Assembly: GCF_008298015.1 (NCBI RefSeq)
Contig: NZ_VTPX01000017.1
Location: forward strand, 1-64,000
DNA: 64,000 nucleotides
Origin: Salinicola corii
Lineage (GTDB): Bacteria > Pseudomonadota > Gammaproteobacteria > Pseudomonadales > Halomonadaceae
Direction: 5' to 3'
The position numbers and the translations under genes are program-made. The notes beneath the pieces are model-generated. The model searched no databases, was not told where the DNA came from, and was given only the letters and a program-made list of their open reading frames with translations. Shown here piece by piece: positions 1-19,009 of the stretch (position 1 is its first letter; each line of letters begins with the position of its first letter).

Positions 1-127
1 AAGACGTTGGTGAGTATCTGATGGGGTACTACAACCGACAGCGACCTCATGCCTTCAATGACAGCATGTCCCCCGTTGTGGCCGAGGAAAACCTTAAAAT
101 ACTGTCCGGAAATAGTTGACCACTACA
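1..127 (+). mobile_element. Right end of an IS3-family insertion sequence
   Basis: An open frame at positions 3-119 encodes the last 38 residues of an IS3-family (IS150-like) OrfB transposase. It includes the typical GYYNRQRPH motif that follows the last catalytic acid of the DDE domain, and it ends at TGA 117-119. The following bases GACCACTACA, ending near 127, read as TGTAGTGGTC on the other strand. This is a typical terminal inverted repeat start for this group. The rest of the element lies off the left edge, so copy completeness cannot be judged. The IS sits about 265 bp upstream of the complex I-like operon and could affect its promoter. Confidence 0.8.
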
Positions 128-256: not shown

Positions 257-391
257 AGGACGCTTATTCAGTTTGCGTTCAGGTCAGCCGCCTACCCTTC
301 GATAAAGGGCTGGTTATCAGCGAAGGGACTGGGACCCGCGGTCATTGTCTCTGGCCCAGGTTCGTTTGAATCAGCGACGCGAGGGATCCGC

Positions 392-739
392 ATGGAGCTG
401 TTCGCTCTTCTCATCATTCTGATCGTGGTACTGGGCGCCGGGCTGCTGGTGCAGTGGCTGCCCATGCGTCATCAGCCTCGGCCCAGATGGTCCCAGCGCG
501 TGCCGTTTCTGGGCGGGGGGACGCCCGACAGCCACGCCTGGAGCCGCTACCACGTTCGCTACTACTCCATGACGCTGCTGTTGATCGCCTTCGAGATGGA
601 GATGATGTTCATGTACCCGTGGGCGGTCGTGTTCGTCGAGACGGGCAAGAAGGCCATGATGGAGATGGGCATGTTTCTCGCCATCCTGTCGGTGGGCATC
701 GTCTATGCCTGGCGTGAGGGGGTGTTCAAGTGGCAGTGA
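392..739 (+). CDS. nuoA: Complex I-like subunit A (NuoA/ND3-like)
   Basis: This 115-residue membrane protein has three predicted hydrophobic segments and resembles NuoA (ND3) of NADH:quinone oxidoreductase. The characteristic acidic helix FEMEMMFMYPWAVVF is kept. The loop that in canonical NuoA reads YECG, with the conserved Cys near the quinone channel, is replaced by a VPFLGGG stretch. The frame is open further upstream, from 254, but GAGGG at 381-385 before ATG 392 and the family length favour this start. It is the first gene of an eight-gene operon and overlaps the next gene by 10 bp. The call is by family resemblance and gene order; the altered loop fits loss of quinone chemistry in this complex. 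Confidence 0.75.
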   Translation: MELFALLIILIVVLGAGLLVQWLPMRHQPRPRWSQRVPFLGGGTPDSHAWSRYHVRYYSMTLLLIAFEMEMMFMYPWAVVFVETGKKAMMEMGMFLAILSVGIVYAWREGVFKWQ

Positions 740-2040
740 ACTGGCTGCACAAACTCGCCTCGCGTGGCAGCGTTCCTGTGTTTCCCGTGCTGGGCAAGCA
801 GGGTGATGGCGCGCTGCGGCATCTCGCGCTTTCTCCGCAAATCGAACTGGTCGACTCGCCGCGCCACGCCAGTGTGTTGCTGGTGGCGGGGGAGATTCCG
901 GCCGACCGCTTCGAGCCCCTGCGTCGGGTGCATGACCAATTGCCATACCCCTTCACGACGCTGTGGTTTCGCAGCGAACCCTGGCCTCATCTGGAACGCG
1001 TGGCCCGTATCGACGATCTCGACGACCTGCCCGGCGCACTGGTCACGGCGCATCTCGAATTGATGGAAGGCTGCCGCGGCAGTACCCATCGTCTCCTGCC
1101 GGACGAGCCGCCCAACCCTTGGGAAGGCGAGGGCGATTTCGGCCAGGGCGGTGAAGGCATGATGGGCGGGGTGCCCTACGGGCGACCCATGGCCATGAAC
1201 ATGGCAGATGACATCCGCGACGGATTGACGCTGGATTCACTGACTTTCCGGCTGGGGCCGTTCTTTTTCGCGTTTCCGCCCGGCATGGCGGCGGAGATCA
1301 CCCTGCAGGGGGATCTCGTGCAGACATGGCAAACGCAATTTGCGCCATATCCACAATCTCTCGACGATATCTTTTTCAACGCTCGCGAGCGCCCCGTCCC
1401 CATTGCGGAGGTCGAGCTTGCCCGGGCCCGCCATCACCTTCACCGGCTGTTCCATGCATTGCACCTGGCGGGTCTGGAGAATGTGAGCCTGCGGACCTTG
1501 CGTCTGGCGCATGGATTGTCGACGTCGAGTACCCTCGATGGATTGCGGCGCGCACTATCACGTAGCGGCTTCTTTCGCCTGACGGCGGGCGGCGGCGTGC
1601 TCGGCCCCGAGCAGGCGCGCATGATCGGTGGGTCCGCCGCTCGAGCTGCCGGAATGGCTGATGACCTACGCTCGGAGGATGCCGGCTATCGACGATTGGG
1701 GTTCTCTCCCGTCTGTCAGACTGCGGGCGATACCCATGCTCGCTGGCGGCAGCTTCTGGACGAAATCGATCAGTCCCTCCATCTGGCCCGTCTGGCCGAA
1801 CGCGACAGGGTACACACGGAGCGAACAGGCAGCGTCGAGACACCGCGTGGCCCCTGGTCGGCGCGGCGGCCGGCGGATGCGAGCGCGCTCTTCGACGAGC
1901 TGTTACCCGGGCTGGAGTGGGGCGATGCCCTGGCGACGGTCGCCAGCCTGGATGTCGCGGGGGTGGCCGATCAACCTGTCGGCACACGGCCATCCGGCGA
2001 GTCCCGGGCGGTACGGGGAGGCACCGGGAACGATGTTTAG
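730..2040 (+). CDS. Degenerate NuoB-NuoD-like fusion subunit of a complex I-like complex
   Basis: This 436-residue soluble protein starts at GTG 730 inside the end of nuoA. Residues 1-110 resemble the NuoB/hydrogenase small-subunit fold (SPRHASVLLVAG at 43-54). After a glycine-rich linker and PYGRPMA (149-155), the rest resembles NuoD/hydrogenase large subunit (LGPFFFAFPPGM near 175-186, a late GPEQARMIGG segment, and VETPRG near the end). I see only two cysteines in the whole protein, one near 115 and one in SPVCQT. The CC..C..C ligands of cluster N2 are therefore absent, and the NuoD His/Tyr quinone-site motifs are not recognisable. It probably acts as a structural connector rather than a redox subunit. 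It overlaps nuoH by 8 bp. Domain identity is inferred from short motifs. Confidence 0.65.
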   Translation: MAVNWLHKLASRGSVPVFPVLGKQGDGALRHLALSPQIELVDSPRHASVLLVAGEIPADRFEPLRRVHDQLPYPFTTLWFRSEPWPHLERVARIDDLDDLPGALVTAHLELMEGCRGSTHRLLPDEPPNPWEGEGDFGQGGEGMMGGVPYGRPMAMNMADDIRDGLTLDSLTFRLGPFFFAFPPGMAAEITLQGDLVQTWQTQFAPYPQSLDDIFFNARERPVPIAEVELARARHHLHRLFHALHLAGLENVSLRTLRLAHGLSTSSTLDGLRRALSRSGFFRLTAGGGVLGPEQARMIGGSAARAAGMADDLRSEDAGYRRLGFSPVCQTAGDTHARWRQLLDEIDQSLHLARLAERDRVHTERTGSVETPRGPWSARRPADASALFDELLPGLEWGDALATVASLDVAGVADQPVGTRPSGESRAVRGGTGNDV

Positions 2041-2956
2041 CGAGCTGTTTCTGCCGGTTCTCATGGTGATCTTCATGTTGGTTGTCGGCGGTTATGCCGT
2101 TGCCGTGCTCGATCGCCTGGTTGCCAGCGCGCTTGGCACCCCCCAGGCCGGAGGTATCTGGCTGGCGCCGATAGCGCGCGGAGCCTGGTTGCTGATCCAG
2201 CACGCCAATGCCACCGAAGCGCCTGACTGGCGAGCCTGGCGGCTGGCACCAGCCCTGTATCTGGCGTTGGCGGCGGGCGGGCTGGCGGTGGTGCCATGGT
2301 CGGCATCGCTGGTCGCCACGGATCTGGTCACCAGCGTGGTGCTGTGGGGCAGCGTGGAAGCGCTGGCGACCGTCGTCATCTTCTTGCATGGCTGGTCGGC
2401 GAATTCGTTACTGGCCTTGATCGGCGGGTACCGGTACGTGGCGCTGGGGCTCTCCTACATCCTGATCAGCATGTTCGTGCTGATCGGCGTGGCATTGCCG
2501 GCCGAATCGCTGCAGTTCACCCAGGTGGTGGCTTCGCAGGAAGGGCTGTGGAACGTCATTCGCCAGCCGCTGGGGCTGCCGCTGTTTCTCATCGTCGGCC
2601 TGGGCATGACCTTCTGGGGGCCGCTGAACCTGGCCGATTCGACGGATCTGGCCGGCGGCACGGCCTCGGAGATCTCGGGACCGCCACGGCTGGTCTGGGA
2701 CATGGCCCGGGCGGCCATGCTGGTTGCGTTCAGCGGCGTGGCAGCGACTGCCTTCCTGGGGGGGGGGCTGGGGCCCTGGCTGCCCGGCCCGTTATGGATG
2801 TCCCTCAAGATGCTGGCGGTATTGAGCGTGCTGCTGTTGCTCGGGCGGCTACTGCCGCGACTGGCGCCGGAGCGCTGCGTCACCTTGATGTGGGTCGTGT
2901 TGCTGCCGCTGTCGTTTATCGATCTGGTGTGGGCCGGGATAGGAGCGCTGTTGTGA
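2033..2956 (+). CDS. nuoH: Complex I-like subunit H (NuoH-like, divergent)
   Basis: This 307-residue polytopic membrane protein with about eight hydrophobic segments sits in the NuoH position. Start ATG 2033 overlaps the preceding stop. Traces of the family remain: a GPLNLADSTDLAGG segment corresponds to the usual acidic loop before a Glu-rich helix, and the following SEISGPPRLVWDMARA keeps a conserved glutamate and SG. The N-terminal GRxGPNxVG-type signature is reduced to GTPQAGGIWLAPIARG, and the usual AEY-type acidic residues are missing. NuoH normally lines the quinone chamber, so the divergence agrees with the decayed NuoB/D partner. A more open reading frame begins at 1628, but that part only shadows the upstream gene. 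Confidence 0.65.
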   Translation: MFSELFLPVLMVIFMLVVGGYAVAVLDRLVASALGTPQAGGIWLAPIARGAWLLIQHANATEAPDWRAWRLAPALYLALAAGGLAVVPWSASLVATDLVTSVVLWGSVEALATVVIFLHGWSANSLLALIGGYRYVALGLSYILISMFVLIGVALPAESLQFTQVVASQEGLWNVIRQPLGLPLFLIVGLGMTFWGPLNLADSTDLAGGTASEISGPPRLVWDMARAAMLVAFSGVAATAFLGGGLGPWLPGPLWMSLKMLAVLSVLLLLGRLLPRLAPERCVTLMWVVLLPLSFIDLVWAGIGALL

Positions 2957-3591
2957 TGGAGAGCATGAATGACGGCATCGGTGTCGATATCGCGTTTCTG
3001 CTGCTGGCCACGCTGGCGGTGGCCACCGGGTGGCGCGTGTTTCGCACCGACTCGATGGTACGGGCCTCCTTCTTTCTGCTGGTGTCGTTCATCGCCGTGG
3101 GCGTGATCATGATCCTGTTGGCGGCGGAATACCTGGGCGTTGCCATGTTCTTCATGATGGCCGTGGAAATGACGGTCATGGCGCTGTTCATGGTCATGTT
3201 CATGATGAACCCGGCCGGCCTGAATCCCATGAACATGGTCCACCAGGAACGTATCGCCATCGGGGCCGGCATCGCCGGTTTTCTGATACTGGGCGCCATG
3301 GCCCTGTTGGCGGTATTTCCCGATCAGCCGGTGCCGGCAGACCTCGAACCCGTCAGATCACTAGGCAACGAAATGCTCGGTGATTCGATGCTGATTTTCG
3401 AATCGGCGGGTCTCGTGCTGCTGACCACCATGATCGGCGTGGTGGTGCTGTCGAGCCATCGCGGGCGCTATGGCGCAGCGGCGGAGGGCTCGATGCCGCC
3501 GGGGCTGGAACCGGGCGGCGACCCGGCAGGCAAGCCCGAGGAGGACGAAGCGGGCGAGGGCGAGCATCACCATCATCACCATCATCACTGA
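2956..3591 (+). CDS. nuoJ: Complex I-like subunit J with natural C-terminal His8 tail
   Basis: This 211-residue membrane protein starts at ATG 2956, overlapping the nuoH stop. It has five hydrophobic segments and a methionine-rich helix (MAVEMTVMALFMVMFMM) typical of the NuoJ (ND6) transmembrane helix 3 region. The last 40 or so residues form a hydrophilic Gly/Glu-rich tail ending in EGE followed by eight consecutive histidines directly before the stop at 3591. A genomic polyhistidine tail is unusual for NuoJ and could bind Zn, Ni or Cu, or be a neutral low-complexity extension. NuoJ helps to form the proton path next to NuoK. A 27-bp gap with GGGAGGC at 3608-3614 separates it from nuoK. Confidence 0.8.
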   Translation: MESMNDGIGVDIAFLLLATLAVATGWRVFRTDSMVRASFFLLVSFIAVGVIMILLAAEYLGVAMFFMMAVEMTVMALFMVMFMMNPAGLNPMNMVHQERIAIGAGIAGFLILGAMALLAVFPDQPVPADLEPVRSLGNEMLGDSMLIFESAGLVLLTTMIGVVVLSSHRGRYGAAAEGSMPPGLEPGGDPAGKPEEDEAGEGEHHHHHHHH

Positions 3592-3618
3592 GCGGGACAG
3601 ACAGGCAGGGAGGCTTGC

Positions 3619-3924
3619 ATGACACTCGCCACACTTTTGCTATTGGCAGCGGCACTGATCGGTATCGGGATCTATGGCGCGCTTTCCCAGCAGTCGTTCG
3701 TGATGTTGATGATGGGACTGGAGCTGATCCTCAACGGTGTCATGCTGGCGGCGGTGGCTTTCTGGGCCTTCAGCGGGGCCGGAGCACCGGAAGGCCAACT
3801 GCTGACGATCATCGTCATGGCCGTGATGGCCATCGAGATGGCGATGGGGTTCGCCCTGGTGGTCGCGGTCTTTCGCGGTAAACAGGCCGACATGACCGAA
3901 TCGCTGACCGGGCTGAAATATTGA
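3619..3924 (+). CDS. nuoK: Complex I-like subunit K (NuoK/ND4L)
   Basis: This 101-residue protein with three transmembrane helices has the usual NuoK length. It carries the conserved glutamate in helix 2 (MGLELILNGVMLA) and a second in helix 3 (VMAIEMAMGFALVVAVF), so the proton-conducting residues of NuoK are kept. This contrasts with the decayed NuoB/D/H part and suggests the membrane arm still moves protons or Na+. An upstream GGGAGG precedes ATG 3619. The stop overlaps the nuoL start. Confidence 0.88.
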   Translation: MTLATLLLLAAALIGIGIYGALSQQSFVMLMMGLELILNGVMLAAVAFWAFSGAGAPEGQLLTIIVMAVMAIEMAMGFALVVAVFRGKQADMTESLTGLKY

Positions 3925-5816
3925 TGCTGTGGTCCGTTCCTCTCGTGCCGCTGCTGGCGGCCCTCGTCATCCATGGGGTCGGCAAGCGTTGGCCGGGCGA
4001 CGACAGGGGCCGTGCCATGCTGACCCTGGCGGGGGTGGCGATCACGGTCGCTACCTTGCTGCTCGTGAGTGTCGCGGTCACGGTGGACTGGAGCGGCACC
4101 TATCGCTGGAGTTCCCGAGTCGTTCTGTCGCTCGGGATGACGTCCGCGAGCGCCGTGTTCGCCATCGTCGTGCCACTGATCGCCGCGCCGATCATCGTCT
4201 ACAGCGCCTACCATGAAGCATCGCCGGTCAGTGGCGGGGGAACGGCGCGCCCACCCGTCGGACTGATGGTGCTGCTGACGGCGTTCGTCGGCGCGATGGA
4301 ACTGCTCGTCCTGGCCGAGGATTTCGTCACCCTGCTGATCGCCTGGGAACTGGTCGGGGCATGCTCGTGGGCGCTGATCGCCCATGAATGGCAGAAGGCC
4401 GGCAACCTGCGGGATGCCGCCTGGGCGTTCCTGGTCACTCGCTTCGGGGATCTGGGGCTGTACATCGCCGCGGCGGCAGCGTTCGCCGGCACGGGCTCGT
4501 TTGCCTTTGCAGACCTGGCCCAACTCGATGGGTGGCGGCTGGACGTGTTCGTTGCCGGCGTCGTGCTGGCCGCCGCCGCGAAATCCGCCCAGGTGCCGTT
4601 CTCTCCCTGGCTGTTTGCCGCCATGTCCGGGCCGACACCGGTGTCGGCATTGCTCCATGCGGCGACCATGGTCGCGGCGGGGATCTATCTGGTGGTCCGG
4701 CTGCATGCGGAACTCTCCGCCGTCGCCTGGTTTGCGCCGGTCGCCATCACGCTGGGGTTGACCACTGCCCTGTCAGGGGGGCTCGTGGCCTGTCTTCAGG
4801 GCCATGCCAAGAAGCTGCTGGCCGCCTCGACATCGGCCCAGTATGGCCTGATGTGGCTGGCGGCAGGGGCGGGCTTTCCCGGCGTCGCCCTGGTGCACTT
4901 CGTCACGCATGCATTCACCAAAGCGGCGCTGTTCCTGGCCGCCGGCATCGCCGAACGCCATGTCGACAGCTATTCGCTGACGGCGATGCGCCTGGGTCGC
5001 CTGCTTCCTGGCGTCGCGGCAGCCAGCATGGTGGCCAGCCTGGCGCTGGCGGGCGTCGTTCCGCTGAGTGCGGCGTGGAGCAAGGAGAAGATCGTCACGG
5101 CCGCCGGCCATCAGGCGCCCTGGCTGGCCGTGATCGTCGCCGTGGCGGCAGGGCTCAGTGCGCTGTACGCCACGCGCTTTCAGCTGCTGGCGTTCGGGCG
5201 GGGGCGGCATGACCGCATGAGCGAGGCTGTCTCCCGGCCCGGCCACTCCCGGGCGGAAGCCGCCGCGCTCTACCTGCTGGCGGCAGGCACATTGGCACTG
5301 TCGCTACTCTGGTGGCCCGGTGTCGGAAATGGTCTCGCCGATTGGCTGTCCGTGCACTTTCCCGGGACCAGGCCGTGGGAACTCATCCTGTCGCTACTGC
5401 TGGTGGCGCTGGGCATGGGCCTGGGCGTCTGGGCGGTGCGTCGTGAAGTGACGGGGGCGCGCCGACCTGGCGCCACGCGAACCGGCGTGGCGGACTGGCT
5501 GGGCCTGCCGAGGCTGGCAGCATGTGGTGCGAATGCCGTGCTGATTTTCAGCCATGGCCTGGCACGCTTCGACGATCGCGCCGTGGATGCCGGGATCCGG
5601 GGCAGTGCCCGCTTCGGTGCGTGGTTGGCCAGGCTGGGAGAGCGGCGTGGCGAAGGCGCGTTCGATGGGGCCACGAACCAGCTCGCGAAGGGTGTCGATT
5701 GGGCGGGGCAAGTGGCACGTCGGGTGCACACTGGGCAGATGCATCACTACTACACCGGTATCGCGGCAGGACTCGCCGCGATCCTGATCATCCTGAGCAT
5801 AGGAGCGCTCCTTTGA
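3924..5816 (+). CDS. nuoL: Complex I-like antiporter subunit L (NuoL/ND5)
   Basis: This 630-residue protein of the proton_antipo_M family has around 14-16 transmembrane helices. It has the antiporter-type lysines and histidines (for example LLHAATMVAAGIYL and FVTHAFTKAALFLAAG) and a glutamate in WELVGACSWALI. The C-terminal part carries a long amphipathic stretch before a last hydrophobic helix, as in NuoL, whose lateral helix clamps the membrane arm. ATG 3924 overlaps the nuoK stop (TGATG). It ends four bases before the nuoM start. NuoL, M and N are the pumping subunits, related to Mrp antiporter MrpA/MrpD. Confidence 0.88.
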   Translation: MLWSVPLVPLLAALVIHGVGKRWPGDDRGRAMLTLAGVAITVATLLLVSVAVTVDWSGTYRWSSRVVLSLGMTSASAVFAIVVPLIAAPIIVYSAYHEASPVSGGGTARPPVGLMVLLTAFVGAMELLVLAEDFVTLLIAWELVGACSWALIAHEWQKAGNLRDAAWAFLVTRFGDLGLYIAAAAAFAGTGSFAFADLAQLDGWRLDVFVAGVVLAAAAKSAQVPFSPWLFAAMSGPTPVSALLHAATMVAAGIYLVVRLHAELSAVAWFAPVAITLGLTTALSGGLVACLQGHAKKLLAASTSAQYGLMWLAAGAGFPGVALVHFVTHAFTKAALFLAAGIAERHVDSYSLTAMRLGRLLPGVAAASMVASLALAGVVPLSAAWSKEKIVTAAGHQAPWLAVIVAVAAGLSALYATRFQLLAFGRGRHDRMSEAVSRPGHSRAEAAALYLLAAGTLALSLLWWPGVGNGLADWLSVHFPGTRPWELILSLLLVALGMGLGVWAVRREVTGARRPGATRTGVADWLGLPRLAACGANAVLIFSHGLARFDDRAVDAGIRGSARFGAWLARLGERRGEGAFDGATNQLAKGVDWAGQVARRVHTGQMHHYYTGIAAGLAAILIILSIGALL

Positions 5817-5818
5817 TT

Positions 5819-7300
5819 TTGACTGCAGCCTTGGGGCTTCCCATGCTGGGGGCTCTCGCACTCGCCGTTTCAAGCCTTTGGACCGAGGCCACGGCTCGCC
5901 GGTTTGCCATCGCGGTCTCGGTGTTGCCGGTGTTGTTGCTGGCCTGGGCGTGGCGACAGTTCGATCCGCAAGGTGCGCTATTCCAGTTCGTCGAGGAGGT
6001 GCCCTGGGTACCCAGCCTGGGCATGAGCTACAGGTTGGGCGTGGATGGCATTGCGCTGGCTGTCGCGACGATGAGTGCGCTAGTCTTCTCGGCCAGCATC
6101 GCCTACCCCGTGGACACGAAGCATCAGCCTCGCCAGTACTACGCCTGGATGCTCTTTCTGCAGTCCGTGTCACTGGGTGTCTTTCTGGCGCTGGACCTGC
6201 TGCTCTTCTATGTCTTTTTCGACCTGAGCCTCGTGGGGATGTTCTTCCTGATCGGCCGTTGGGGGCATGGCCAGGCGCAGTTCGCCGCGTTCAAGTTTTT
6301 TCTATACACCTTCTGCGGCTCGCTGTTGCTGCTGTTAGCGATCATCGGACTCTATCTGTCGGTCGAACCGCATACCTTCGACATGCGCGTGCTCATCGAG
6401 CAGCAACCGCTGGCGGGCGCGGGCATGACGGCCGGCCTGGTGTTCCTCGCCCTCATGCTCGGCTTCGCCATCAAGACACCGGTGGTGCCCGTGCATACCT
6501 GGCTGCCCCAGGCGCATGTCGATGCCCCGGGGCCGGTCTCGGCGATTCTCGCCGGGGTGCTGCTCAAGATGGGTACTTACGGAATCATCCGCATTCCGTT
6601 CGCCATGATGGCGGAGACGTTCTCACGCTATGCCCTGGTCATTGCGCTGTTCGCGGTCGCGTCGATTCTCTACGGGGCTTTCGTGGCGCTTGGTCAGAGC
6701 AACCTGAAACGACGTATCGCCTACACGTCGATCAATCACATGGGCTACACGGTGCTGGGTATCGCCGCCGCCGGTGCCCTGATCCAGGACACCGGATATG
6801 CCCGCGAGCTGGCCCTGGTGGGGGCCACGATGGAAATGGTGGCGCACGGCCTGATTACCGGGGCGCTGTTCCTGATCTGTGGCTCGTTCTGGCAGCGTAC
6901 CGAGGAGTATGACCTGGACAGCTACGGTGGTCTGCTTCGTCAGGCCCCGTGGCTGACCGCCTTCGCCGTGCTCGCCTCCTTTGCCAGCCTGGGCCTGCCC
7001 GGCTTGGCCGGTTTCGTGGCGGAGTTCCATATCTTTGCCGGCACCTTCGGTGTCTATCCATGGCTCGCCGTCATCGGTGTGCTGGGCATCCTGGTGACGG
7101 CGGCGCTGTTTCTGCAGATGCTGCAGAAGGTGTTCTTCGGGGCGATGCCGGAGCGCTGGGCGCAGTTCGAGGATCTGCGTCCCATCGAGTGGGGCGTGCT
7201 CGCGGTGCTGTCGGCAGGCTTCGTGATCATCGGCGTGGCGCCGGCGTTTCTGCTGACCCTGGTCGAGGCATCGGCGACGCTGCTGGTGGGAGGTCGCTGA
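5819..7300 (+). CDS. nuoM: Complex I-like antiporter subunit M (NuoM/ND4)
   Basis: This 493-residue proton_antipo_M protein carries strong NuoM motifs: MFFLIGRWG, GFAIKTPVVPVHTWLPQAHVDAP, LAGVLLKMGTYG and MVAHGLITGALFLICG. The pumping residues (Lys in GFAIKTP and in LLKMG, His in MVAHG) are present. No ATG lies at the expected start. TTG 5819, just after the nuoL stop, with AGGAG near 5801-5805, is the best candidate, giving LTAALGLPMLG as the N-terminus. ATT 5816 or ATG 5843 are alternatives. It overlaps the nuoN start by one base. Confidence 0.88.
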   Translation: MTAALGLPMLGALALAVSSLWTEATARRFAIAVSVLPVLLLAWAWRQFDPQGALFQFVEEVPWVPSLGMSYRLGVDGIALAVATMSALVFSASIAYPVDTKHQPRQYYAWMLFLQSVSLGVFLALDLLLFYVFFDLSLVGMFFLIGRWGHGQAQFAAFKFFLYTFCGSLLLLLAIIGLYLSVEPHTFDMRVLIEQQPLAGAGMTAGLVFLALMLGFAIKTPVVPVHTWLPQAHVDAPGPVSAILAGVLLKMGTYGIIRIPFAMMAETFSRYALVIALFAVASILYGAFVALGQSNLKRRIAYTSINHMGYTVLGIAAAGALIQDTGYARELALVGATMEMVAHGLITGALFLICGSFWQRTEEYDLDSYGGLLRQAPWLTAFAVLASFASLGLPGLAGFVAEFHIFAGTFGVYPWLAVIGVLGILVTAALFLQMLQKVFFGAMPERWAQFEDLRPIEWGVLAVLSAGFVIIGVAPAFLLTLVEASATLLVGGR

Positions 7301-8709
7301 TGCCTATCGGTGACGTACTGCCGGAAATCAGCCTGACGCTGGGTGCCGTGGCGATCGTCCTGTTCGCCAGCTTCGTCCGTCAGCGGCAGCATCACTGGGC
7401 AGCCGTGCTGGCCCTGCTCGCCATCGGCCTCGGCGCGGGGTTGACCGTCGCGCAATGGGGCGGGGCGCCGCGGCTGACGTTTTCCGGTGTCTGGGCCCTG
7501 GATGGCGTGGCGCTCGCCAGCAAGCTGGTGGTGCTGGTCGCCGGTGCGCTGGTTGTCGCGATGTCGCCTGAATGGATGCGGACCGATCGCCGCCATGGCG
7601 AGTACTACGCGCTGGTGCTGTTCGCCCTGCTGGGCGTCATCATGATGGCATCGGCCAGCGATACCATGGAACTGGTGTTGGGCGTGCTGCTGTCATCGGT
7701 GGCGAGTTACCCGCTGGCCGCCTATCACCGTGGCTGGGCGCCCGCGCTGGAAGCCGGGATGAAGTATTTCCTGATCGGCGCCTTGACCAATACGTTGCTG
7801 ACGATCGGGGTGGTGGTGCTGTTCGGCCTGACCGGCAGTACCGGGTATCCGGACATCGCCCAAACGCTTGCCACGGACAGCGACCGCCTGGCGCTTACCA
7901 TTGCCACGGCCTGCGTTGTGCTGGGCCTGACCTTCAAGCTGGCGGCGTTTCCGGCTCACGCCTGGATGCCGGACGTGGCGCAGGGCTCGCCAGTACCGGC
8001 GGCGGCCTTCTTGACTGTCATTCCCAAGGTCGGTGCCGCAGTGGCGCTGGCCCGTTTCGTCTCCCTGCTGCCGCCGGACGTCGCCTCGCGGGCGATCGTG
8101 GCATTGATCTCCGTCGCTACCATGACGCTGGGTAACGTGGCGGCGTTGCGACAGACGGACGTGCGCCGCCTGCTGGGCTGGTCATCGGTTTCCCAGTCCG
8201 GCTATGCCCTGATGGCCATCGTGGTGCTGGGTGTCAGCGATCAGGCCCTGCCGGCACTGGTGTTCTTCCTGGCGAGCTATGCCACGGCCAACCTGGCTGC
8301 CTTCGCCGTGGTCACGCACCTGCGGGGACGTACCGCACTGGACGATTACCGGGGGCTGGCCCGACACGCACCGATCGCGGCCACGATACTGATCGTGTCG
8401 CTGTTGTCCCTGGTGGGGATCCCGCCGCTGGTCGGCTTCTTCGGCAAGCTGATGCTGTTTCGCGTCACCCTCGACGGCGGTTACGCCTGGCTGGCGCTCG
8501 TGGCGGCAATCAACACCGTCGTCTCGCTGTTCTATTACCTGCGCATCGTCGCGCCGATGATGTTCGGCAATCATCGGTCCGCCGTGCATGTGCTGTCGGG
8601 CCAGTGGGCGCGTGCCACGATGGCCGTGGCGGGCGTGCTGCTGATCGTCGGAGGACTCGGCGCGGAAGCGCTCTCGCTGTTTACAGAATCGATACGCTTT
8701 GCCCTGTAG
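7300..8709 (+). CDS. nuoN: Complex I-like antiporter subunit N (NuoN/ND2)
   Basis: This 469-residue proton_antipo_M protein has NuoN-type signatures: YFLIGALTNTLL, LTFKLAAFPAHAWMPDVAQGSP, LLGWSSVSQSGYALM and SLVGIPPLVGFFGKLMLF. ATG 7300 overlaps the nuoM stop. It is the last gene of the operon; no canonical nuoB, C, D, E, F, G or I is found next to it. The operon therefore encodes a membrane arm plus a single altered connector protein. Electron input must come from another partner, or the complex works as a cation/proton antiporter. No clear terminator hairpin with a T-run follows in the 63 bp before egtB. Confidence 0.88.
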   Translation: MPIGDVLPEISLTLGAVAIVLFASFVRQRQHHWAAVLALLAIGLGAGLTVAQWGGAPRLTFSGVWALDGVALASKLVVLVAGALVVAMSPEWMRTDRRHGEYYALVLFALLGVIMMASASDTMELVLGVLLSSVASYPLAAYHRGWAPALEAGMKYFLIGALTNTLLTIGVVVLFGLTGSTGYPDIAQTLATDSDRLALTIATACVVLGLTFKLAAFPAHAWMPDVAQGSPVPAAAFLTVIPKVGAAVALARFVSLLPPDVASRAIVALISVATMTLGNVAALRQTDVRRLLGWSSVSQSGYALMAIVVLGVSDQALPALVFFLASYATANLAAFAVVTHLRGRTALDDYRGLARHAPIAATILIVSLLSLVGIPPLVGFFGKLMLFRVTLDGGYAWLALVAAINTVVSLFYYLRIVAPMMFGNHRSAVHVLSGQWARATMAVAGVLLIVGGLGAEALSLFTESIRFAL

Positions 8710-8772
8710 GCCCCGGCGGGCCTGGCCTGCCGGATCCACGTCAATGGAGTGATACTGAGAAAGGAGTCATTT

Positions 8773-10089
8773 ATGTCACCTGCTCAAGGTTTGGCCATCG
8801 AAACGCCAGACAACCTGCACGCCAAGGAGTGGCTGCGCGCGTACCAGCGGATTCGTGCCGCCACCGAGGCCATCTGTGCGCCTCTGCACAAGGAAGACTA
8901 CATGGTGCAGAGCATGCCGGATGTCAGCCCGCCGAAATGGCACATCGCCCATGTCAGCTGGTTTTTCGAAGCCTTCATCCTGAAACCGTTCCTGCCCGCC
9001 TACCAGACCCTCGACCCCGCGTACGATCACCTCTTCAACTCCTATTACGTGACCCACGGCACGCCGTTCCCCCGGCCCGAACGCGGCATGATCTCGCGGC
9101 CGACCGTGGACGATGTCTATCGCTATCGCGCTCACGTCGACCGGGCCATGGAAGCGCTGCTCAGCGATCCACCGCAGGAACATCTCCAGGAGATTCTCCG
9201 ACGTCTCGAGCTGGGCCTGCCGCACGAACAGCAGCATCAGGAGCTGCTGCTAATGGATATCAAGCACATCCTGGCTCAGAACCCGTTGTGCCCGGCCTAC
9301 CGGAACGACCTGGCGCTGACGCCCGCGCATGACGTCGCTGCGCTCGGCTGGCATGTCTATCCGGCCGGCGTTCGGTACATCGGCCACGACGAAACCAAGG
9401 AGGGCTTTGCCTATGACAACGAGATGGGGCGCCACCGCCAGTTCGTCGAGGCTTTCCAGATCGCCGACCGCCCGGTGACCAACGGCGAGTTTCTCGCGTT
9501 CATGCAGGCGGGGGGATACGACAAGCCCGAGCACTGGCTGTCGGACGGCTGGGCCACGGTCGAGGCCGAAGGCTGGCAGGCGCCGCTCTACTGGGTCGAG
9601 CGCGACGGTGTCTGGCACCACTACACTCTGGGCGGCCTGGTACCGGTCGACATGAACGCGCCGGTCTGCCATGTCAGCTTCTTCGAGGCCGATGCCTATG
9701 CACAGTGGGCCGGTGCCCGCCTGCCCACCGAGGCCGAGTGGGAGACGGTGGCCCATGATGCCGCCATTCAGGGCAACTTCGGGCAGGGGAACTTCGTCGA
9801 GCAGGACCATCTGCAGCCGGTCGCGGCCGTGCAGCCAGCGGAAGTGCCAGGACAAATGTTCGGCGATGTCTGGGAGTGGACGGGCAGCGCCTATCGCCCC
9901 TATCCGGGGTTTCGCAAGTTGCCGGGCAGTCTGGGGGAATACAACGGCAAGTTCATGTCCGGCCAGATGGTGTTGAGAGGCGGCTGTTGTGCGACGCCGG
10001 CCGATCACATCCGCGTCACCTATCGCAACTTCTTCCCGCCTCATGCCCGCTGGGCATTCTCGGGATTTCGCCTGGCAAGAGAGGCGTGA
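8773..10089 (+). CDS. egtB: Hercynine oxygenase EgtB (ergothioneine biosynthesis)
   Basis: This 438-residue non-haem iron sulfoxide synthase would join hercynine to a thiol (gamma-glutamylcysteine or cysteine) with O2 in ergothioneine synthesis. An N-terminal DinB-like helical domain supplies the Fe ligands (WHIAH and the HEQQHQE three-histidine motif near residues 145-155). A C-terminal FGE-sulfatase domain follows (PVTNGEFLAFM, RLPTEAEWE, FGDVWEWTGSAY, RGGCCATP, ARWAFSGFRLAR at the end). AAGGAG at 8760-8765 before ATG 8773 sets the start; the in-frame codon at 8749 lacks a ribosome site. The partner methyltransferase gene egtD directly downstream is broken, so EgtB may have lost its substrate unless another EgtD is encoded elsewhere. 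Confidence 0.93.
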   Translation: MSPAQGLAIETPDNLHAKEWLRAYQRIRAATEAICAPLHKEDYMVQSMPDVSPPKWHIAHVSWFFEAFILKPFLPAYQTLDPAYDHLFNSYYVTHGTPFPRPERGMISRPTVDDVYRYRAHVDRAMEALLSDPPQEHLQEILRRLELGLPHEQQHQELLLMDIKHILAQNPLCPAYRNDLALTPAHDVAALGWHVYPAGVRYIGHDETKEGFAYDNEMGRHRQFVEAFQIADRPVTNGEFLAFMQAGGYDKPEHWLSDGWATVEAEGWQAPLYWVERDGVWHHYTLGGLVPVDMNAPVCHVSFFEADAYAQWAGARLPTEAEWETVAHDAAIQGNFGQGNFVEQDHLQPVAAVQPAEVPGQMFGDVWEWTGSAYRPYPGFRKLPGSLGEYNGKFMSGQMVLRGGCCATPADHIRVTYRNFFPPHARWAFSGFRLAREA

Positions 10090-11601: not shown

Positions 11602-12442
11602 GACAATCTCCTAAAAGTTGGTACAGCCTAAGTATGTGCGACGAATCTGAACTGGAGCTGAAAGCGATACGAATATTGATGGATAAACTTGAAAAGCGAA
11701 TCTGGTAATGGGGTGGCGTAAGTCAATTGCACTAAGTGAATGTTTTCTTTGCGGTTCTGCTTGTTCTATCACATTGCAATCCTTTCACCAAATTAGATAG
11801 GTCTTCAGATGTTCATGCCACGACACCTCGTCCGACCTATGATAGCACCACTTATGTTAAACTCTGTTTCTTTATAGCCTCTCTGTATTTCGAACGTTTC
11901 TCGAATCTGCTTGAAGATTCAGACCACTAACGGTGTTTAAAATGACTGAAAAGGTTTGGTGCATAGGAAATGATATTTCTATAGCCGGTAGCCGGTAGCC
12001 GGTAGCCGGTAGCCGGTAGAGGGTAGGGGATGCCGTGTTGCCAGCAAATAAATCTTGAAGAACCGACCAGCAGAGCGGCACTGGTTAGCTTGTTTGGCGA
12101 GTGAGTCCTCCAATTTCCGAATTATAGCTGCATTTGTCCTGCATTTTGACGAACATAAGGATCGGGAAAGGCCGCATTGTCTAACACGATCGCACGGGAT
12201 CCATATGCAAACTATCGAATTATAAAGGACACCGACTAGAATCACTCAAACCATGATGGATACGTCACACCTATGACGATGAGACGGCATTCATGGTTTC
12301 CTGCATGAGTCTCCCTGAGTCCGACAAGTATTTTCGGTCCGATCCATCGACTCTTCAAGAGGATCAAAAGATTGGAAACAGGGAGCTCTACCAATTATTT
12401 CATCCGAATATCTTCGAAATCTTGCTTCGAACTGACGCTAGA
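11602..12442. other. 840-bp gene-poor region with short tandem repeats
   Basis: No convincing coding sequence is visible; the open frames here (64-109 codons) have no family features and several overlap the heptamer repeat. The stretch is richer in A+T than its flanks. It holds the promoter region of the secreted-protein gene at its left end, the tandem heptamer at 11982-12023, and nothing else I recognise. With the decayed egtD it looks like a region undergoing gene loss. Confidence 0.6.
11982..12023. repeat. Tandem heptanucleotide repeat, five copies of TAGCCGG
   Basis: Five exact head-to-tail copies of TAGCCGG (11982-12016) are followed by a degenerate TAGAGGG (12017-12023). A 7-bp unit is not a multiple of three and lies outside any supported gene. 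It could change copy number by slipped-strand replication. Confidence 0.9.
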
Positions 12443-13028: not shown

Positions 13029-13811
13029 TCAGTACCAGGCTCGCAGACCCACTACCCATGCAGTAGTCGATTCATCCTCGTCGTAATTGCGTTCATGACT
13101 GATCCCCACGTAAGGGCTGATCTCCCGTATCAGGCTATAACTTAGCCTCAGCCCGACCTCGCTGCTGTTGAGGCCTTGCTCCAGGTCATATTCCGGCACA
13201 TCTTGAAGCGATGCCGAGAGCTCCAGCCGAGGCTGAAGAATCAGTCGTTGAGTGATGAGCATTTCATATTCGAATTCGGTGCTTGCGCTGACATCACCCT
13301 CGTCACTGACGAATAACGCAGTGTCGGTTTCCATCATCAAAGGTGCCAGCCCCTGAAAGCCAACGACCGCGAAGCGTCGATCGGGGTCCGGATTGAAGCT
13401 TTGACGCACGCCCGTCTGCAAGTTCCAGAACGGGCTTATCGCGCGACTATAGAGCAACTGGAGATCGCTGCTTTCGGGACCTCCTCCATTGGTTGGCCCT
13501 TCTCCTTCGCTTTTCCACCAGAAACGGTCGATGTCGTTTCCAATCCAGCCTTGGGCATCCCACAGCCAGGCGTTGGGGGCGCCGTTTGTGTCGCGATACT
13601 CGAACCGATCCAGGAGTATCTGGCTGAACAGCGCGTCATCATGTACCGGTTCGTTCCACTCGGCGGGAGAGCCGCTGTGGGCGTTCAGAGGCCCGCCGGG
13701 GACGACTTCGTCCACATTGGCACGGCCATGGTTGTCGGCGATAGCGGCGACTGGCAAGCATAGAGCCGCGAGGAGGAGTGTTCCGCAACAGGTGAATTTG
13801 CTGTTAAACAT
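13029..13811 (-). CDS. copB: Copper resistance outer-membrane protein CopB
   Basis: This 260-residue protein has a signal peptide (LLLAALCLPVAAIA) and the CopB/PcoB core: FSQILLDRFEYRD near the start, WDAQGWIGNDIDRFWWKSEGEG, LYSRAISPFWNLQTGVR, and a terminal beta-strand ending in tyrosine (VVGLRAWY) as in outer-membrane barrels. The N-terminal methionine/histidine-rich repeats found in many CopB proteins are absent, making it shorter than plasmid-borne versions. Its ATG overlaps the end of copA by 8 bp (13804-13811), so the two are translationally coupled. CopB works with CopA in periplasmic copper detoxification. Confidence 0.9.
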   Translation of the reverse strand: MFNSKFTCCGTLLLAALCLPVAAIADNHGRANVDEVVPGGPLNAHSGSPAEWNEPVHDDALFSQILLDRFEYRDTNGAPNAWLWDAQGWIGNDIDRFWWKSEGEGPTNGGGPESSDLQLLYSRAISPFWNLQTGVRQSFNPDPDRRFAVVGFQGLAPLMMETDTALFVSDEGDVSASTEFEYEMLITQRLILQPRLELSASLQDVPEYDLEQGLNSSEVGLRLSYSLIREISPYVGISHERNYDEDESTTAWVVGLRAWY

Positions 13812-15777
13812 TGTCGAACGCCTCCGCCGGAGCGACTCTGACTACCCGGAACATCCCGGCATCCATGTGGTACAACAAATGGCAGTGGAAAGCCCAGCGA
13901 CCCGGTTCATCTGCAGTGAGAAGTAATGACGCACGCGAGGCCGGCAGGACGCTGAGCGTGTGTTTGAACGGTAGGTGTTCCCCCTGTCCGTTCTCCAGCT
14001 CCATAAACATGCCATGTAGGTGGATGGGATGCTCCATCATGGTGTCGTTGACCAGCACCAGACGAATACGGTCTCCCAGCACGATGTCGATTGGCTCGGC
14101 GTCGGAATACTTCACGCCGTCGAATGACCACATGTAGCGATCCATATTGCCGGTCAGGTGCAGTTCGATCGTACGTGACGGCGGGCGTCGGTCGCGCATG
14201 GGCTTGATGTTGCGTAGCTGACTATAGGTGAGCACGCGATGATCGACAGTCTCGAGACCGGTCCCACGTTCACCGAGCCGGTTGCGCTGCAGCTCGGCGA
14301 CGTTGATGTTGCCGGGTCCGTGGCCGCCTTGCTCATGGCGTGACACGACCGGGCCGGCATCCTCTGCGCCCATTCCGCCCATTCCGCCCATTCCGCCCAT
14401 TCCGCCCATTCCGGCCATGGCGTTGTGGTTGCCGCCGGCGTGATTCATGCCCGACATGCTGCCATCGCCCATGCCATTCCTGGAGCCGTGATTCATACCC
14501 GACATGCCACCATCGCTCATGCCATTCATGGAGCCGTGGTTCATCGACATGCTGCCATCGCTCATGCCACTCATCTCACCGGCGGCCATGCCGCCCATGG
14601 CGCCGTGCGACATATCCATACCCATATCCACCATCGTGCGCTGCGGTGGCTCTCTCAACGGGGGTACCGCCGCGCGCATGCCAGCGCGAGGCGCCAAAGT
14701 GCCCAAGGCGAAACCACTGCGGTCCATTGATTCCGCCATCAGCGTGTAGGCAGTGTCTGCTCGCGGCTCGATGATAACGTCATAGGTTTCTGCGACACCG
14801 ATCTGAAACTCGTCGGTTTCTACCGGCTCCACTTCCTCACCGTCAGCACCTACCACTGTCATGGCCAGGCCGGGAATGCGGAAGTTAAAGTAGGTCATTG
14901 CCGAGGCATTGATAACCCGCAGCCGTATCCTCTCTTCCGGTTGAAAGAGTCCTTCCCAGCCAGCCGCCGGATGACGGCCGTTCATCAAGTAGGTGTACGT
15001 CGACCCTGTCACATCGGCAATGTCTCTGGGACTCATGCGCATATTGTTCCACGCCAGACGGTCTTGTAGCGTGGCTTTCCAACCATGCTTCTCCACGGCC
15101 TCGAAAAAATCGCCTGCCGTGCGTTCGTTGTAGTTGTAGTAGTCGCTTTGACTTTTCAGCCGTGCCATCACTCTATGTGGATCTTCAAAGGTCCAGTCGT
15201 TGAGCATGATCACGTATTCGCGATCGGCCTGTATCCGATGGGGGGCTGCAGGGTGCACGACGAGCGGGCCGGTCAGACCGATCTGCTCCTGCATGCCGGA
15301 GTGACTGTGATACCAATAGGTGCCGCTCTGGCGCACGGGGAATGCCGCCTCAAAACTTTCGCCAGGTGCGATGCCGGGGAACGACACACCTGGCACGCCA
15401 TCCATCTCGAACGGCAAGAGCAAACCATGCCAATGAATAGAGGTATCTTCATCGAGATGGTTGTGAATGCGCAGGCGTGCGGTTTGCCCCTCCCATAGTT
15501 CGATTAGCGGCGCGGGAATCGAACGATTGATGGTGATGCCGCTGCCAAGGCCACCGGCGATGGCAACCCGTTCTCGACGCACGTCGAGATCCAGCGAGAC
15601 AGGGCGGGGCGAGCCGCCCGCAACCAGCGCCGCGACCCCACTCTGCGAAGAGAGCGCCTCGCCTCGGGCATAGCTGGGTAGCAGTGACTCCAATCCTGCT
15701 AGGGCGCCGGTTCCGGCCAGTGCGATCAGAAGTCGACGACGATCATTATCGATCGAGCGATGTTTCATGGATTTCAT
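13804..15777 (-). CDS. copA: Periplasmic multicopper oxidase CopA
   Basis: This 657-residue multicopper oxidase carries a twin-arginine signal (NDRRRLLIALAGTGALAG) for export after folding. The four copper-ligand motifs are present: HWHGLLLPFEMDGVPG, WYHSHSGMQ, HPIHLHGMFMELENG, and HCHLLYHMDAGM near the C-terminus. Between the second and third cupredoxin domains lies a long Met/His/Gly-rich segment (about residues 385-480) built of GMSDGSMSMNHGSM-like units and a run of GGM triplets, as in CopA/PcoA copper-storage regions. It probably oxidises Cu(I) and sequesters copper in the periplasm. It is coupled to copB and lies downstream of the cupredoxin gene in the same operon. Confidence 0.95.
   Translation of the reverse strand: MKSMKHRSIDNDRRRLLIALAGTGALAGLESLLPSYARGEALSSQSGVAALVAGGSPRPVSLDLDVRRERVAIAGGLGSGITINRSIPAPLIELWEGQTARLRIHNHLDEDTSIHWHGLLLPFEMDGVPGVSFPGIAPGESFEAAFPVRQSGTYWYHSHSGMQEQIGLTGPLVVHPAAPHRIQADREYVIMLNDWTFEDPHRVMARLKSQSDYYNYNERTAGDFFEAVEKHGWKATLQDRLAWNNMRMSPRDIADVTGSTYTYLMNGRHPAAGWEGLFQPEERIRLRVINASAMTYFNFRIPGLAMTVVGADGEEVEPVETDEFQIGVAETYDVIIEPRADTAYTLMAESMDRSGFALGTLAPRAGMRAAVPPLREPPQRTMVDMGMDMSHGAMGGMAAGEMSGMSDGSMSMNHGSMNGMSDGGMSGMNHGSRNGMGDGSMSGMNHAGGNHNAMAGMGGMGGMGGMGGMGAEDAGPVVSRHEQGGHGPGNINVAELQRNRLGERGTGLETVDHRVLTYSQLRNIKPMRDRRPPSRTIELHLTGNMDRYMWSFDGVKYSDAEPIDIVLGDRIRLVLVNDTMMEHPIHLHGMFMELENGQGEHLPFKHTLSVLPASRASLLLTADEPGRWAFHCHLLYHMDAGMFRVVRVAPAEAFDNV
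14371..14415 (-). repeat. 9-bp minisatellite within copA (Gly-Gly-Met units)
   Basis: Four exact copies of CATTCCGCC and a fifth variant (CATTCCGGC) lie head to tail; read on the minus strand they encode repeated Gly-Gly-Met. The unit length keeps the frame, so copy changes would lengthen or shorten the methionine-rich copper-binding segment without breaking copA. Confidence 0.9.
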
Positions 15778-16435: not shown

Positions 16436-16891
16436 TCAACCTGCCGATATCGGCAGGGTCATGAACACTTGAGTTTCGTTATCGTCGAACTGATGCACGT
16501 TCAAGGCCCGAGCCTGATCGCCGGGCATCCCCGGTGTGCCAGCCGGCATGCCGGGCAGGGCTATACCGCGAACGCTTGGACGTTCGGCAAAAAGCCGATC
16601 GAGCGCTGCGCCGGGGACATGGCCCTCGACAACGTAGCCCCCCATCTCGAGGGTGTGGCAGCTCCCGAGTCCATGAGGAAGGTCAAGGCGTTCTTTGATT
16701 TCGCCGAGGTTGGTGGTTTCCACGACTTTGACATCGACACCACGTTCCTTCAGATAATCGCCGTAAGCGGCACAGCAACCGCAGGAAGGGCTTTTATAGA
16801 GTGTCGCCTGGTCGGGCAGTGAAGCGTGGGCCACTTGGGCACCCAGCATGAATGTTGCGGATAACAACAATGCGATGTTTCTGCTTGGCAT
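16436..16891 (-). CDS. copG: DUF411 metal-binding protein (CopG-like)
   Basis: This 151-residue periplasmic protein has a signal peptide (IALLLSATFMLGAQVAHA) and a DUF411 domain with thioredoxin-like layout. It shows the CxCC motif in YKSPSCGCCAAYGDYL and a second cysteine in LGSCHTLEMGGYVVEGHVPG. These cysteines match the copper-cluster site known from CopG proteins, which are thought to interconvert Cu(I)/Cu(II). It is the first gene of the structural copper operon, with the next gene about 97 bp downstream. Its promoter region carries the paired TTCAG repeats described separately. Confidence 0.88.
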   Translation of the reverse strand: MPSRNIALLLSATFMLGAQVAHASLPDQATLYKSPSCGCCAAYGDYLKERGVDVKVVETTNLGEIKERLDLPHGLGSCHTLEMGGYVVEGHVPGAALDRLFAERPSVRGIALPGMPAGTPGMPGDQARALNVHQFDDNETQVFMTLPISAG

Positions 16892-16942
16892 GACGAATCT
16901 CCGGAGCGTTCATGAGCCTTCGCCAACAGTAAACGTGGGTAA

Positions 16943-16959
16943 GCTGAAAAGAGGCTGAA
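16943..16959 (-). promoter_or_regulatory. Candidate CopR operator before the copper structural operon
   Basis: On the minus strand TTCAGC occurs twice with starts exactly 11 bp apart (complement of 16954-16959 and 16943-16948), 52-68 bp upstream of the copG ATG. The 11-bp phasing is that of OmpR/PhoB-type regulators binding direct repeats. The same TTCAG-N6-TTCAG pattern occurs in front of copR. Confidence 0.55.
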
Positions 16960-18988: not shown

Positions 18989-19009
18989 GGTTCCTGAATG
19001 GTTCCTGAA
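18989..19009 (-). promoter_or_regulatory. Candidate CopR operator before copR (perfect 10-bp direct repeat)
   Basis: On the minus strand TTCAGGAACC occurs twice (complement of 19000-19009 and 18989-18998), with starts 11 bp apart, about 42-62 bp upstream of the copR start. The shared TTCAG core and spacing match the repeat before copG. Confidence 0.6.

What the first reader, a model, noticed from the sequence alone, without database searches (positions are those of the whole stretch)
392..8709. Complex I-like operon with membrane arm kept but redox core decayed
Seen: the gene order is A, a B/D-like fusion, H, J, K, L, M, N, with no E, F, G or I. The fusion protein has only two cysteines, so cluster N2 cannot be bound, and NuoA and NuoH have lost their quinone-site motifs, while K, L, M and N keep pumping residues. 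Known: NuoL/M/N are homologous to Mrp antiporters. Inferred: this is a redox-free ion-translocating complex, or one driven by an unknown partner. The catalytic subunits seem to have been turned into a scaffold.
Basis: partly seen in the sequence, partly recalled or inferred. Interest (0 to 1): 0.7.

Follow-up and report, generated by a model that had tools for sequence, protein, structure and literature searches.

The report
Copper-linked, redox-free complex I relative
A respiratory-complex-I-like gene set that has lost its electron-transfer chemistry, sits among copper-resistance genes and carries metal-binding features instead, so it may be a proton-driven copper pump, a use of this machine that we did not find described.

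Summary
Window 392-8709 encodes A, a NuoB/NuoD-like fusion, H, J, K, L, M, N, with no C, E, F, G or I. The N2 cysteines and quinone-site residues are gone; proton-path residues of K, L, M and N are mostly kept. The genome has a separate complete nuo operon. This is not decay: 80 related loci in five phyla keep the set, and 25 sampled NuoM proteins form one clade apart from canonical ones. In 35 of 80 loci copper-resistance genes lie within the fetched flanks (0 of 38 canonical controls). In 44 of 55 distant relatives the NuoD-like subunit carries Cu/Ag-type HMBD motifs. Both subfamilies share new methionines in A, J and K (88-100% conserved), where the related Mrp antiporter moves Na+/K+; complex I's essential NuoJ Tyr59 is Met in 80 of 81. 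In the window a direct repeat, TTCAG-N6-TTCAG (4 sites, 0.07 expected), precedes nuoA and three copper-region transcription units. Best reading: a copper-induced, proton-coupled Cu(I) transporter, probably an exporter. Copper link and lack of redox are well supported; transport and direction are inferred. None of ten literature searches listed a description.

The parts
267..282 (+). TTCAG-N6-TTCAG direct repeat, putative response-regulator box before nuoA (start codon at 392)
   Evidence: 4 exact copies in the window, 0.07 expected, 0 of 100 shuffles reach 4; 8 in the whole genome, 4 of them in this region, reversed-pattern control 4; near the start of the nuoA ORF in 12 of 20 Halomonadaceae loci
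392..739 (+). NuoA-like subunit; gained Met69, Met71, Met74 in TM2
   Evidence: PF00507 E 4e-23; Met columns
730..2040 (+). NuoB/NuoD-like fusion, head subunit without Fe-S or quinone ligands
1114..1230 (+). linker (residues 129-167) with GGEGMMGGVPYGRPMAM, conserved but predicted disordered; lies where distant relatives carry HMBD or His/Met-rich stretches
   Evidence: alignments; pLDDT below 50
2033..2956 (+). NuoH-like subunit, quinone/E-channel acids lost
   Evidence: PF00146 E 3e-37; residue table
2956..3591 (+). NuoJ-like subunit
   Evidence: PF00499 E 6.5e-19
3154..3207 (+). Met-rich TM3 of NuoJ (residues 67-84, MMAVEMTVMALFMVMFMM); Tyr59 of E. coli replaced by Met68, new Glu71
   Evidence: 80 of 81 family sequences have both; canonical 48 of 48 Tyr and 47 of 48 Ala
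3565..3588 (+). natural His8 C-terminal tail of NuoJ
   Evidence: translation; 24 of 27 type I NuoJ have at least 4 His in the last 60 residues, 0 of 54 type II, 0 of 34 canonical
3619..3924 (+). NuoK-like subunit; gained Met29, Met67, Met70, Met74
   Evidence: PF00420 E 1.6e-15
3921..5816 (+). NuoL-like antiporter-type subunit
   Evidence: PF00361 E 2.8e-42; proton-path residues
5816..7300 (+). NuoM-like antiporter-type subunit
   Evidence: PF00361 E 2.9e-64; tree
7300..8709 (+). NuoN-like antiporter-type subunit (E133 equivalent lost)
   Evidence: PF00361 E 4.6e-58
8749..10089 (+). egtB (ergothioneine biosynthesis), follows the operon in many Halomonadaceae
   Evidence: phmmer to annotated EgtB of the KO116 plasmid; cluster in 9 loci, with egtD-labelled cluster in 12
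11647..11662 (-). second TTCAG-N6-TTCAG box, before a small protein with an apparent signal peptide (read by eye) at 11188-11601(-)
13029..13811 (-). CopB copper resistance protein
   Evidence: PF05275 E 4.8e-72
13804..15777 (-). CopA-type multicopper oxidase with Met-rich region; the only PF07732 match in the genome
15832..16338 (-). cupredoxin, Met/His rich
   Evidence: PF00127 E 5.9e-10
16439..16909 (-). DUF411-like protein (ORF stretch)
   Evidence: phmmer E 3e-48 to the annotated DUF411 protein of the KO116 plasmid
16944..16959 (-). third box, before the DUF411-cupredoxin-copA-copB group
16988..18313 (-). sensor histidine kinase
   Evidence: PF02518/PF00512
18282..18947 (-). response regulator, OmpR-like by sequence (recalled; no domain search run)
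   Evidence: translation
18994..19009 (-). fourth box, before the regulator/kinase pair

Best explanation
A copper-induced membrane complex built from complex I parts, which couples movement of Cu(I) (or a similar soft ion) to the proton gradient, most likely as an H+/Cu+ antiporter that expels cytosolic copper to the periplasm, where the co-regulated multicopper oxidase CopA and cupredoxin deal with it. Shown by sequence: loss of the Fe-S and quinone sites, conservation of most proton-path residues in K/L/M/N, highly conserved new methionines plus a new Glu in A/J/K, metal-binding domains or tails in the complex, association with copper genes, and a promoter element shared with them. Inferred: that the element makes the operon copper-induced; that the methionines carry the metal; that the head collects it; that proton entry through the antiporter-like subunits drives it; and the direction (export).
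For: Copper neighbours in 35 of 80 loci vs 0 of 38 canonical nuoD loci; after 75% identity clustering 26 of 49 clusters; median distance 492 bp in the 35. Clustering of flanking ORFs without any reference: multicopper oxidases (16 loci) and P1B-ATPases (15) lead, leaving out two unlabelled clusters that I judge to be antisense shadows of the ATPases. HMBD motifs in the NuoD-like subunit of 44 of 55 type II loci; 8 of the other 11 have a His/Met-rich linker, 3 are cut by a contig start; Pfam HMBD E 7.4e-72 in Sulfitobacter; the two solved structures matched are a Cu efflux ATPase, 3rfu, and 8ovl, a Cu-translocating ATPase chain of 83 residues; passages of PMC11970713 describe the LpCopA domain and SilB's as Cu+/Ag+ sites. 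Met gains: 17 of 61 gained columns in A/J/K vs 3 of 127 in H/L/M/N, Fisher p 4e-7, a grouping made after seeing the columns; it held with 13 canonical NuoJ and NuoK from the family's own host genomes, several of other phyla. NuoJ Tyr59 is Met in 80 of 81 with Glu three residues on; passages of PMC7419157 place the Mrp Na+/K+ path at that residue's equivalent (E706) and at MrpC, the NuoK homologue. Shared box. Proton-path residues.
Against: No transport or phenotype data. 45 of 80 loci show no gene of the strict copper list in their flanks (many flanks are short). The Met positions of NuoJ TM3 do not lie on one helix face (p 0.41). NuoN E133, whose Mrp counterpart faces the cation site, is Leu/Val. 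The window's own fusion has no HMBD and two Cys. The box is missing before nuoA in 8 of 20 Halomonadaceae loci and from all 60 other loci. A three-antiporter machine for exporting Cu(I), which ATPases already do, is energetically lavish.
Confidence: 0.5

Rival explanations
1. A copper-regulated Na+/H+ or K+/H+ antiporter: the complex repairs pH or ion balance under copper stress, and the metal-binding parts only sense copper and gate it.
For: Homology to Mrp; L/M/K residues kept; HMBD, linker and His tail are in the head or at a subunit's end, not in the membrane helices.
Against: Does not explain the conserved methionines inside A/J/K in both subfamilies; hard cations are not bound by thioethers (general chemistry).
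Confidence: 0.2
2. A pmf-driven Cu(I) importer or supply line, feeding multicopper oxidase or cytochrome oxidase assembly.
For: The sequence data do not fix the direction; multicopper oxidases are the commonest labelled neighbour.
Against: Neighbours are resistance genes (CopB, P1B-ATPase, CsoR-like, CopC).
Confidence: 0.12
3. A copper-redox pump: Cu(I)/Cu(II) chemistry at the head or quinone-free electron transfer drives proton pumping.
For: Complex I ancestry; Cys-rich HMBDs in type II.
Against: Quinone and N2 sites lost; window head has two Cys; no complex I redox subunit in 80 of 80 loci.
Confidence: 0.08
4. A soft-metal system whose real substrate is Ag(I) or another ion, copper genes being neighbours by island structure.
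For: HMBD-type sites bind Ag+ as well as Cu+ (passages of PMC11970713).
Against: Shared box with copper genes; labelled neighbours are mainly Cu families.
Confidence: 0.06
5. Non-functional hitchhiker or decaying complex I.
For: Patchy: present in 6 of 18 genomes of the genus; contig ends at an IS-like sequence before the operon.
Against: Conserved in five phyla with nearly invariant residues; one NuoM clade 99/100.
Confidence: 0.02

Closest known systems
Respiratory complex I (NDH-1)
   Same: Homologous A, B, D, H, J, K, L, M, N; most proton-path residues kept
   Different: No C, E, F, G, I; no N2 or quinone site; Met-rich A/J/K; metal-binding additions; linked to copper genes
Mrp Na+(K+)/H+ antiporter
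   Same: Redox-free; NuoJ/NuoK-type subunits next to antiporter-like subunits; the proposed mechanism is modelled on it
   Different: Has A, H, a BD head and three antiporter-like subunits; the E706 position is Met here, with Met around it
MBH/MBS membrane-bound hydrogenase or sulfane reductase complexes
   Same: MbhJ is the best sequence match of the head and MbhL the third fold match
   Different: No metal cofactor ligands of the hydrogenase type (two Cys in all); complex I-type subunit set
DAB2 (DabA/DabB) CO2-hydrating complex
   Same: Precedent for a NuoL-type subunit coupled to a non-redox enzyme head (abstract of PMC13144422)
   Different: One antiporter-like subunit, beta-carbonic-anhydrase-like head, other substrate
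P1B-1 Cu+-ATPases such as LpCopA, and SilB
   Same: HMBD-type Cu+/Ag+ domain; sulfur ligands for Cu(I)
   Different: ATP-driven or RND-linked, unrelated membrane parts

Membership tests
Complex I (NADH:quinone oxidoreductase) | NuoE, F, G NADH module and NuoI | tested here: not met
   0 of 80 loci have such a gene as best label; own genome's copies lie in the canonical operon
Complex I (NADH:quinone oxidoreductase) | Cluster N2 cysteines of NuoB | tested here: not met
   2 Cys in the fusion; Fe-S motifs lie outside the 44 alignable columns
Complex I (NADH:quinone oxidoreductase) | Quinone site (NuoD HPSxHG, NuoH acids) | tested here: not met
Complex I superfamily membrane arm | NuoL/M/N/K proton-path Lys/Glu/His | tested here: met
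   (exception NuoN E133)
Mrp antiporter | Mrp subunit set (MrpA-G) | tested here: not met
   Subunits are NuoA/H/J/K/L/M/N type, best NCBIfam matches are Nuo models for these seven
Mrp antiporter | Cation/H+ exchange | not testable with these tools
   -
Membrane-bound hydrogenase | [NiFe] ligands in the large subunit, [4Fe-4S] in the small | tested here: not met
   2 Cys in the whole fusion
DAB complex | DabA-type head beside one DabB | tested here: not met
   Pfam matches of the eight operon proteins are all Nuo-type; the rest of the locus was not searched for DabA
New copper-linked complex I-like family (proposed) | A-(B)D-H-J-K-L-M-N only, Met-rich NuoJ TM3 with Met at Tyr59 | tested here: met
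New copper-linked complex I-like family (proposed) | Copper binding and transport | not testable with these tools

The most novel reading that the evidence does not exclude
Complex I was turned into a proton-driven Cu(I) pump: the redox head became a metal collector (HMBD, Met linker, His tail) and the E-channel bundle a methionine-lined metal path taking the place that Na+/K+ has in Mrp. This would be a new class of copper exporter, spread by plasmids and islands among five phyla.
Probability: 0.5. Interest if true: 0.93.

Novelty: new variant of a known kind. Interest (0 to 1): 0.85.

Why it matters
It would be a complex I relative with no redox chemistry and a metal substrate, giving a direct test of how charge in the A/H/J/K bundle couples to the antiporter-like subunits, a central open question for complex I. 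It would also add a pmf-driven inner-membrane route to copper resistance and give a function to genes now annotated as NADH-quinone oxidoreductase subunits or hypothetical proteins.

Tried and rejected
Viral contigs: no relative by tblastn among 44 pattern matches. PADLOC defence models: no match for 3 proteins. The Pseudomonas-type cop box (recalled pattern TKACA-N6-TGTNA, one mismatch): 7 matches, 10.6 expected, none near nuoA or copA. Met positions of NuoJ TM3 on one helix face: not significant. 10-mers shared between the nuoA upstream region and three copper-region upstream stretches: one, by the regulator, which I took for chance. Extra operon genes upstream: in L036, near-identical with a longer contig, the stretch I read (5500-9700) has a helicase-like gene and nothing nuo-like before nuoA. 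Structure-library search with VIA-align: not available.

Limits of the counts: the copper reference proteins came from four plasmid regions in which I had already seen the association, one of which (Rubrobacter, L056) is among the 80 loci; one search does not use those references to form clusters, only to label them. Control L145 was a filler and was left out. L044 and L056 were left out of the residue alignments as duplicates. The canonical controls are all from the window's phylum; NuoA came from only two loci more; NuoN had one canonical control. The TTCAG pattern was picked from nuoA upstream regions, so only its other sites are a test. HMBD counts are by a sequence pattern on stop-to-stop frames; in L099 the motif lies on a second, overlapping frame.
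Full report
OBSERVATION. The eight ORFs are real and in the order stated. The window is the start of contig 8 of a 4.66 Mb genome; bases 1-119 read as the end of an IS3-type transposase (recalled from its sequence; translation). A near-identical genome with a longer contig (L036, labelled uncultured Kushneria sp., 100% over 279 residues; other close matches are Salinicola and Chromohalobacter) shows nothing nuo-like in the 3.7 kb read upstream, so the operon starts at nuoA. The genome also has a complete canonical nuo operon on contig 29.

THE HEAD. The 436-residue fusion keeps NuoB residues ~40-83 and a NuoD-like domain along 307 columns. AlphaFold from 26 sequences gives mean pLDDT 84 and pTM 0.82; the best PDB matches are NuoD, NdhH and MbhL chains at modest TM-scores of about 0.4-0.5. 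The Fe-S and quinone motifs are gone. The linker between the halves, residues 129-167, is predicted disordered, yet it holds one of the most conserved stretches among the nine type I proteins, GGEGMMGGxPYGRPMAM.

DISTRIBUTION. A scan of 84,980 species genomes with the NuoD-like domain found 96 relatives among 359 pattern matches; 80 loci were kept: Halomonadaceae, Rhodobacterales and other Alphaproteobacteria, Gammaproteobacteria such as Thiogranum, Actinomycetota (Rubrobacter, Egibacteraceae, Acidimicrobiales), Chloroflexi, Fodinibius (Balneolota) and Cyclobacteriaceae (Bacteroidota). In an even draw of 398 genomes of the phylum, 7 have a true member (E < 1e-60; the next matches are at 7e-14 and weaker). 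In the kin draw, 15 of 97 genomes matched; one of these (G095) is a weak partial match; within the genus 6 of 18. A plasmid search gave 18 records with a match; in the four with usable annotation that I opened the eight genes are together, and in a fifth they are broken into many frames. In a NuoM tree of 50 rows the 25 family rows form one clade (99/100) with two subclades; canonical copies from the same genomes lie outside. The tool warns about long branches elsewhere in that tree (E. coli NuoL and NuoN, two controls). Type I (window; 25 of 80 loci): fusion with the Met linker, GMMGG in 23 of 25, no HMBD in 25 of 25, and a His-rich NuoJ tail in 24 of 27 sequences examined. Type II (55 of 80): NuoD-like subunit with HMBD motifs in 44, His/Met-rich linker in 8 of the other 11, and 3 cut by a contig start (tails).

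COPPER LINK. Within the fetched flanks 35 of 80 loci have a copper-resistance gene from a strict list; 0 of 38 canonical nuoD loci do (Fisher p 6e-8). After clustering at 75% identity, 26 of 49 clusters have one. The 45 others have none; many flanks are short. Reference-free clustering of flanking ORFs puts multicopper oxidases (16 loci) and P1B-ATPases (15) first among labelled clusters, then EgtB/EgtD, CopB, CsoR-like and DUF6629. In the window, CopB, CopA, a cupredoxin, a DUF411-like protein and a two-component pair lie at 13.0-18.9 kb; this CopA is the only PF07732 match in the genome. The direct repeat TTCAG-N6-TTCAG occurs 4 times in the window (0.07 expected), before nuoA, before a small protein with an apparent signal peptide, before the DUF411-cupredoxin-copA-copB group and before the regulator/kinase pair; 8 occur in the genome, against 4 of the reversed pattern. 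In the 20 Halomonadaceae loci it lies near the start of the nuoA ORF in 12 and of 6 of 9 CopA-labelled ORFs (some are fragments of one broken gene in L044); 21 sites against 0.74 expected; in the other 60 loci and the 38 controls there are none. On the KO116 plasmid it precedes CopC, cupredoxin, CopA, a permease and nuoA.

MEMBRANE ARM. Residues of the proton paths in K, L and M, and most in N, are kept, whereas the NuoH acids leading from the quinone site are not. Columns that changed between canonical and family proteins in both subfamilies show methionine gains in J (10 of 33), K (4 of 14) and A (3 of 14), against 3 of 127 in H, L, M and N together (N had one control, and the grouping was made after seeing the columns). 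NuoJ TM3 reads MMAxEMxxMAxFMVMFMM; E. coli Tyr59 is Met in 80 of 81 and Ala62 is Glu in 80 of 81. In the Mrp structure paper (PMC7419157, passages only) the residue equivalent to Tyr59, E706, lies on the Na+/K+ path together with histidines of MrpC, the NuoK homologue. Several gained methionines are therefore in the subunits, and one at the residue, where Mrp moves its cation. Thioether ligands suit Cu(I) (general chemistry).

MECHANISM. Proposed: Cu(I) is collected by HMBD or Met/His segments of the cytoplasmic head or the NuoJ tail, handed to the A/J/K bundle, and released to the periplasm while protons enter through N, M and L. Direction, stoichiometry and substrate are inferred. The side of the membrane on which the NuoJ tail lies was not determined.

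NOVELTY. Ten searches of a PMC open-access library listed no paper that, by title and start of abstract, describes such a complex; I saw search listings for most, the abstract of PMC13144422 and passages of PMC11970713 and PMC7419157. Subscription papers and preprints were not searched.

Noticed in passing
window 10215-10998: egtD-like sequence is split over different frames (three ORF pieces), so it looks broken in this genome; egtB beside it is open.
   Followed up: partly
window 1-119: Contig begins inside what reads as an IS3-type transposase end; the sequence before the shared nuoA upstream region differs in the near-identical L036, where a helicase-like gene lies upstream.
   Followed up: partly
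L024, L051, L075, L082, L084: Rhodobacterales P-type ATPases near the operon have CPD in place of the usual CPC motif, with His/Met-rich N-termini: possibly an unusual P1B subgroup.
   Followed up: partly
L098 5695-6414 and 9 other loci: DUF6629 membrane protein is a recurrent neighbour of type II operons (10 loci).
   Followed up: no
L054 9906-11147: Recurrent histidine kinase (cluster of 9 loci), in L054 with a Met-rich N-terminal region; may be a metal sensor.
   Followed up: no
   Followed up: no
L022/L044 (AP019515.1): The operon on the Vreelandella sulfidaeris plasmid is broken into many frames and annotated as hypothetical proteins; sequencing errors or decay.
   Followed up: no
window 57300-61847: 1515-residue ORF on the minus strand without a Pfam match at E 0.001.
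   Followed up: partly
window 22462-24339: Phosphoethanolamine transferase (EptA/B-type), followed by several other sugar- or lipid-modifying-looking genes (by eye).
   Followed up: no
L087: Thermomicrobiales locus where J, L, M and N labels each occur on more than one ORF, perhaps a duplicated or broken set.
   Followed up: no
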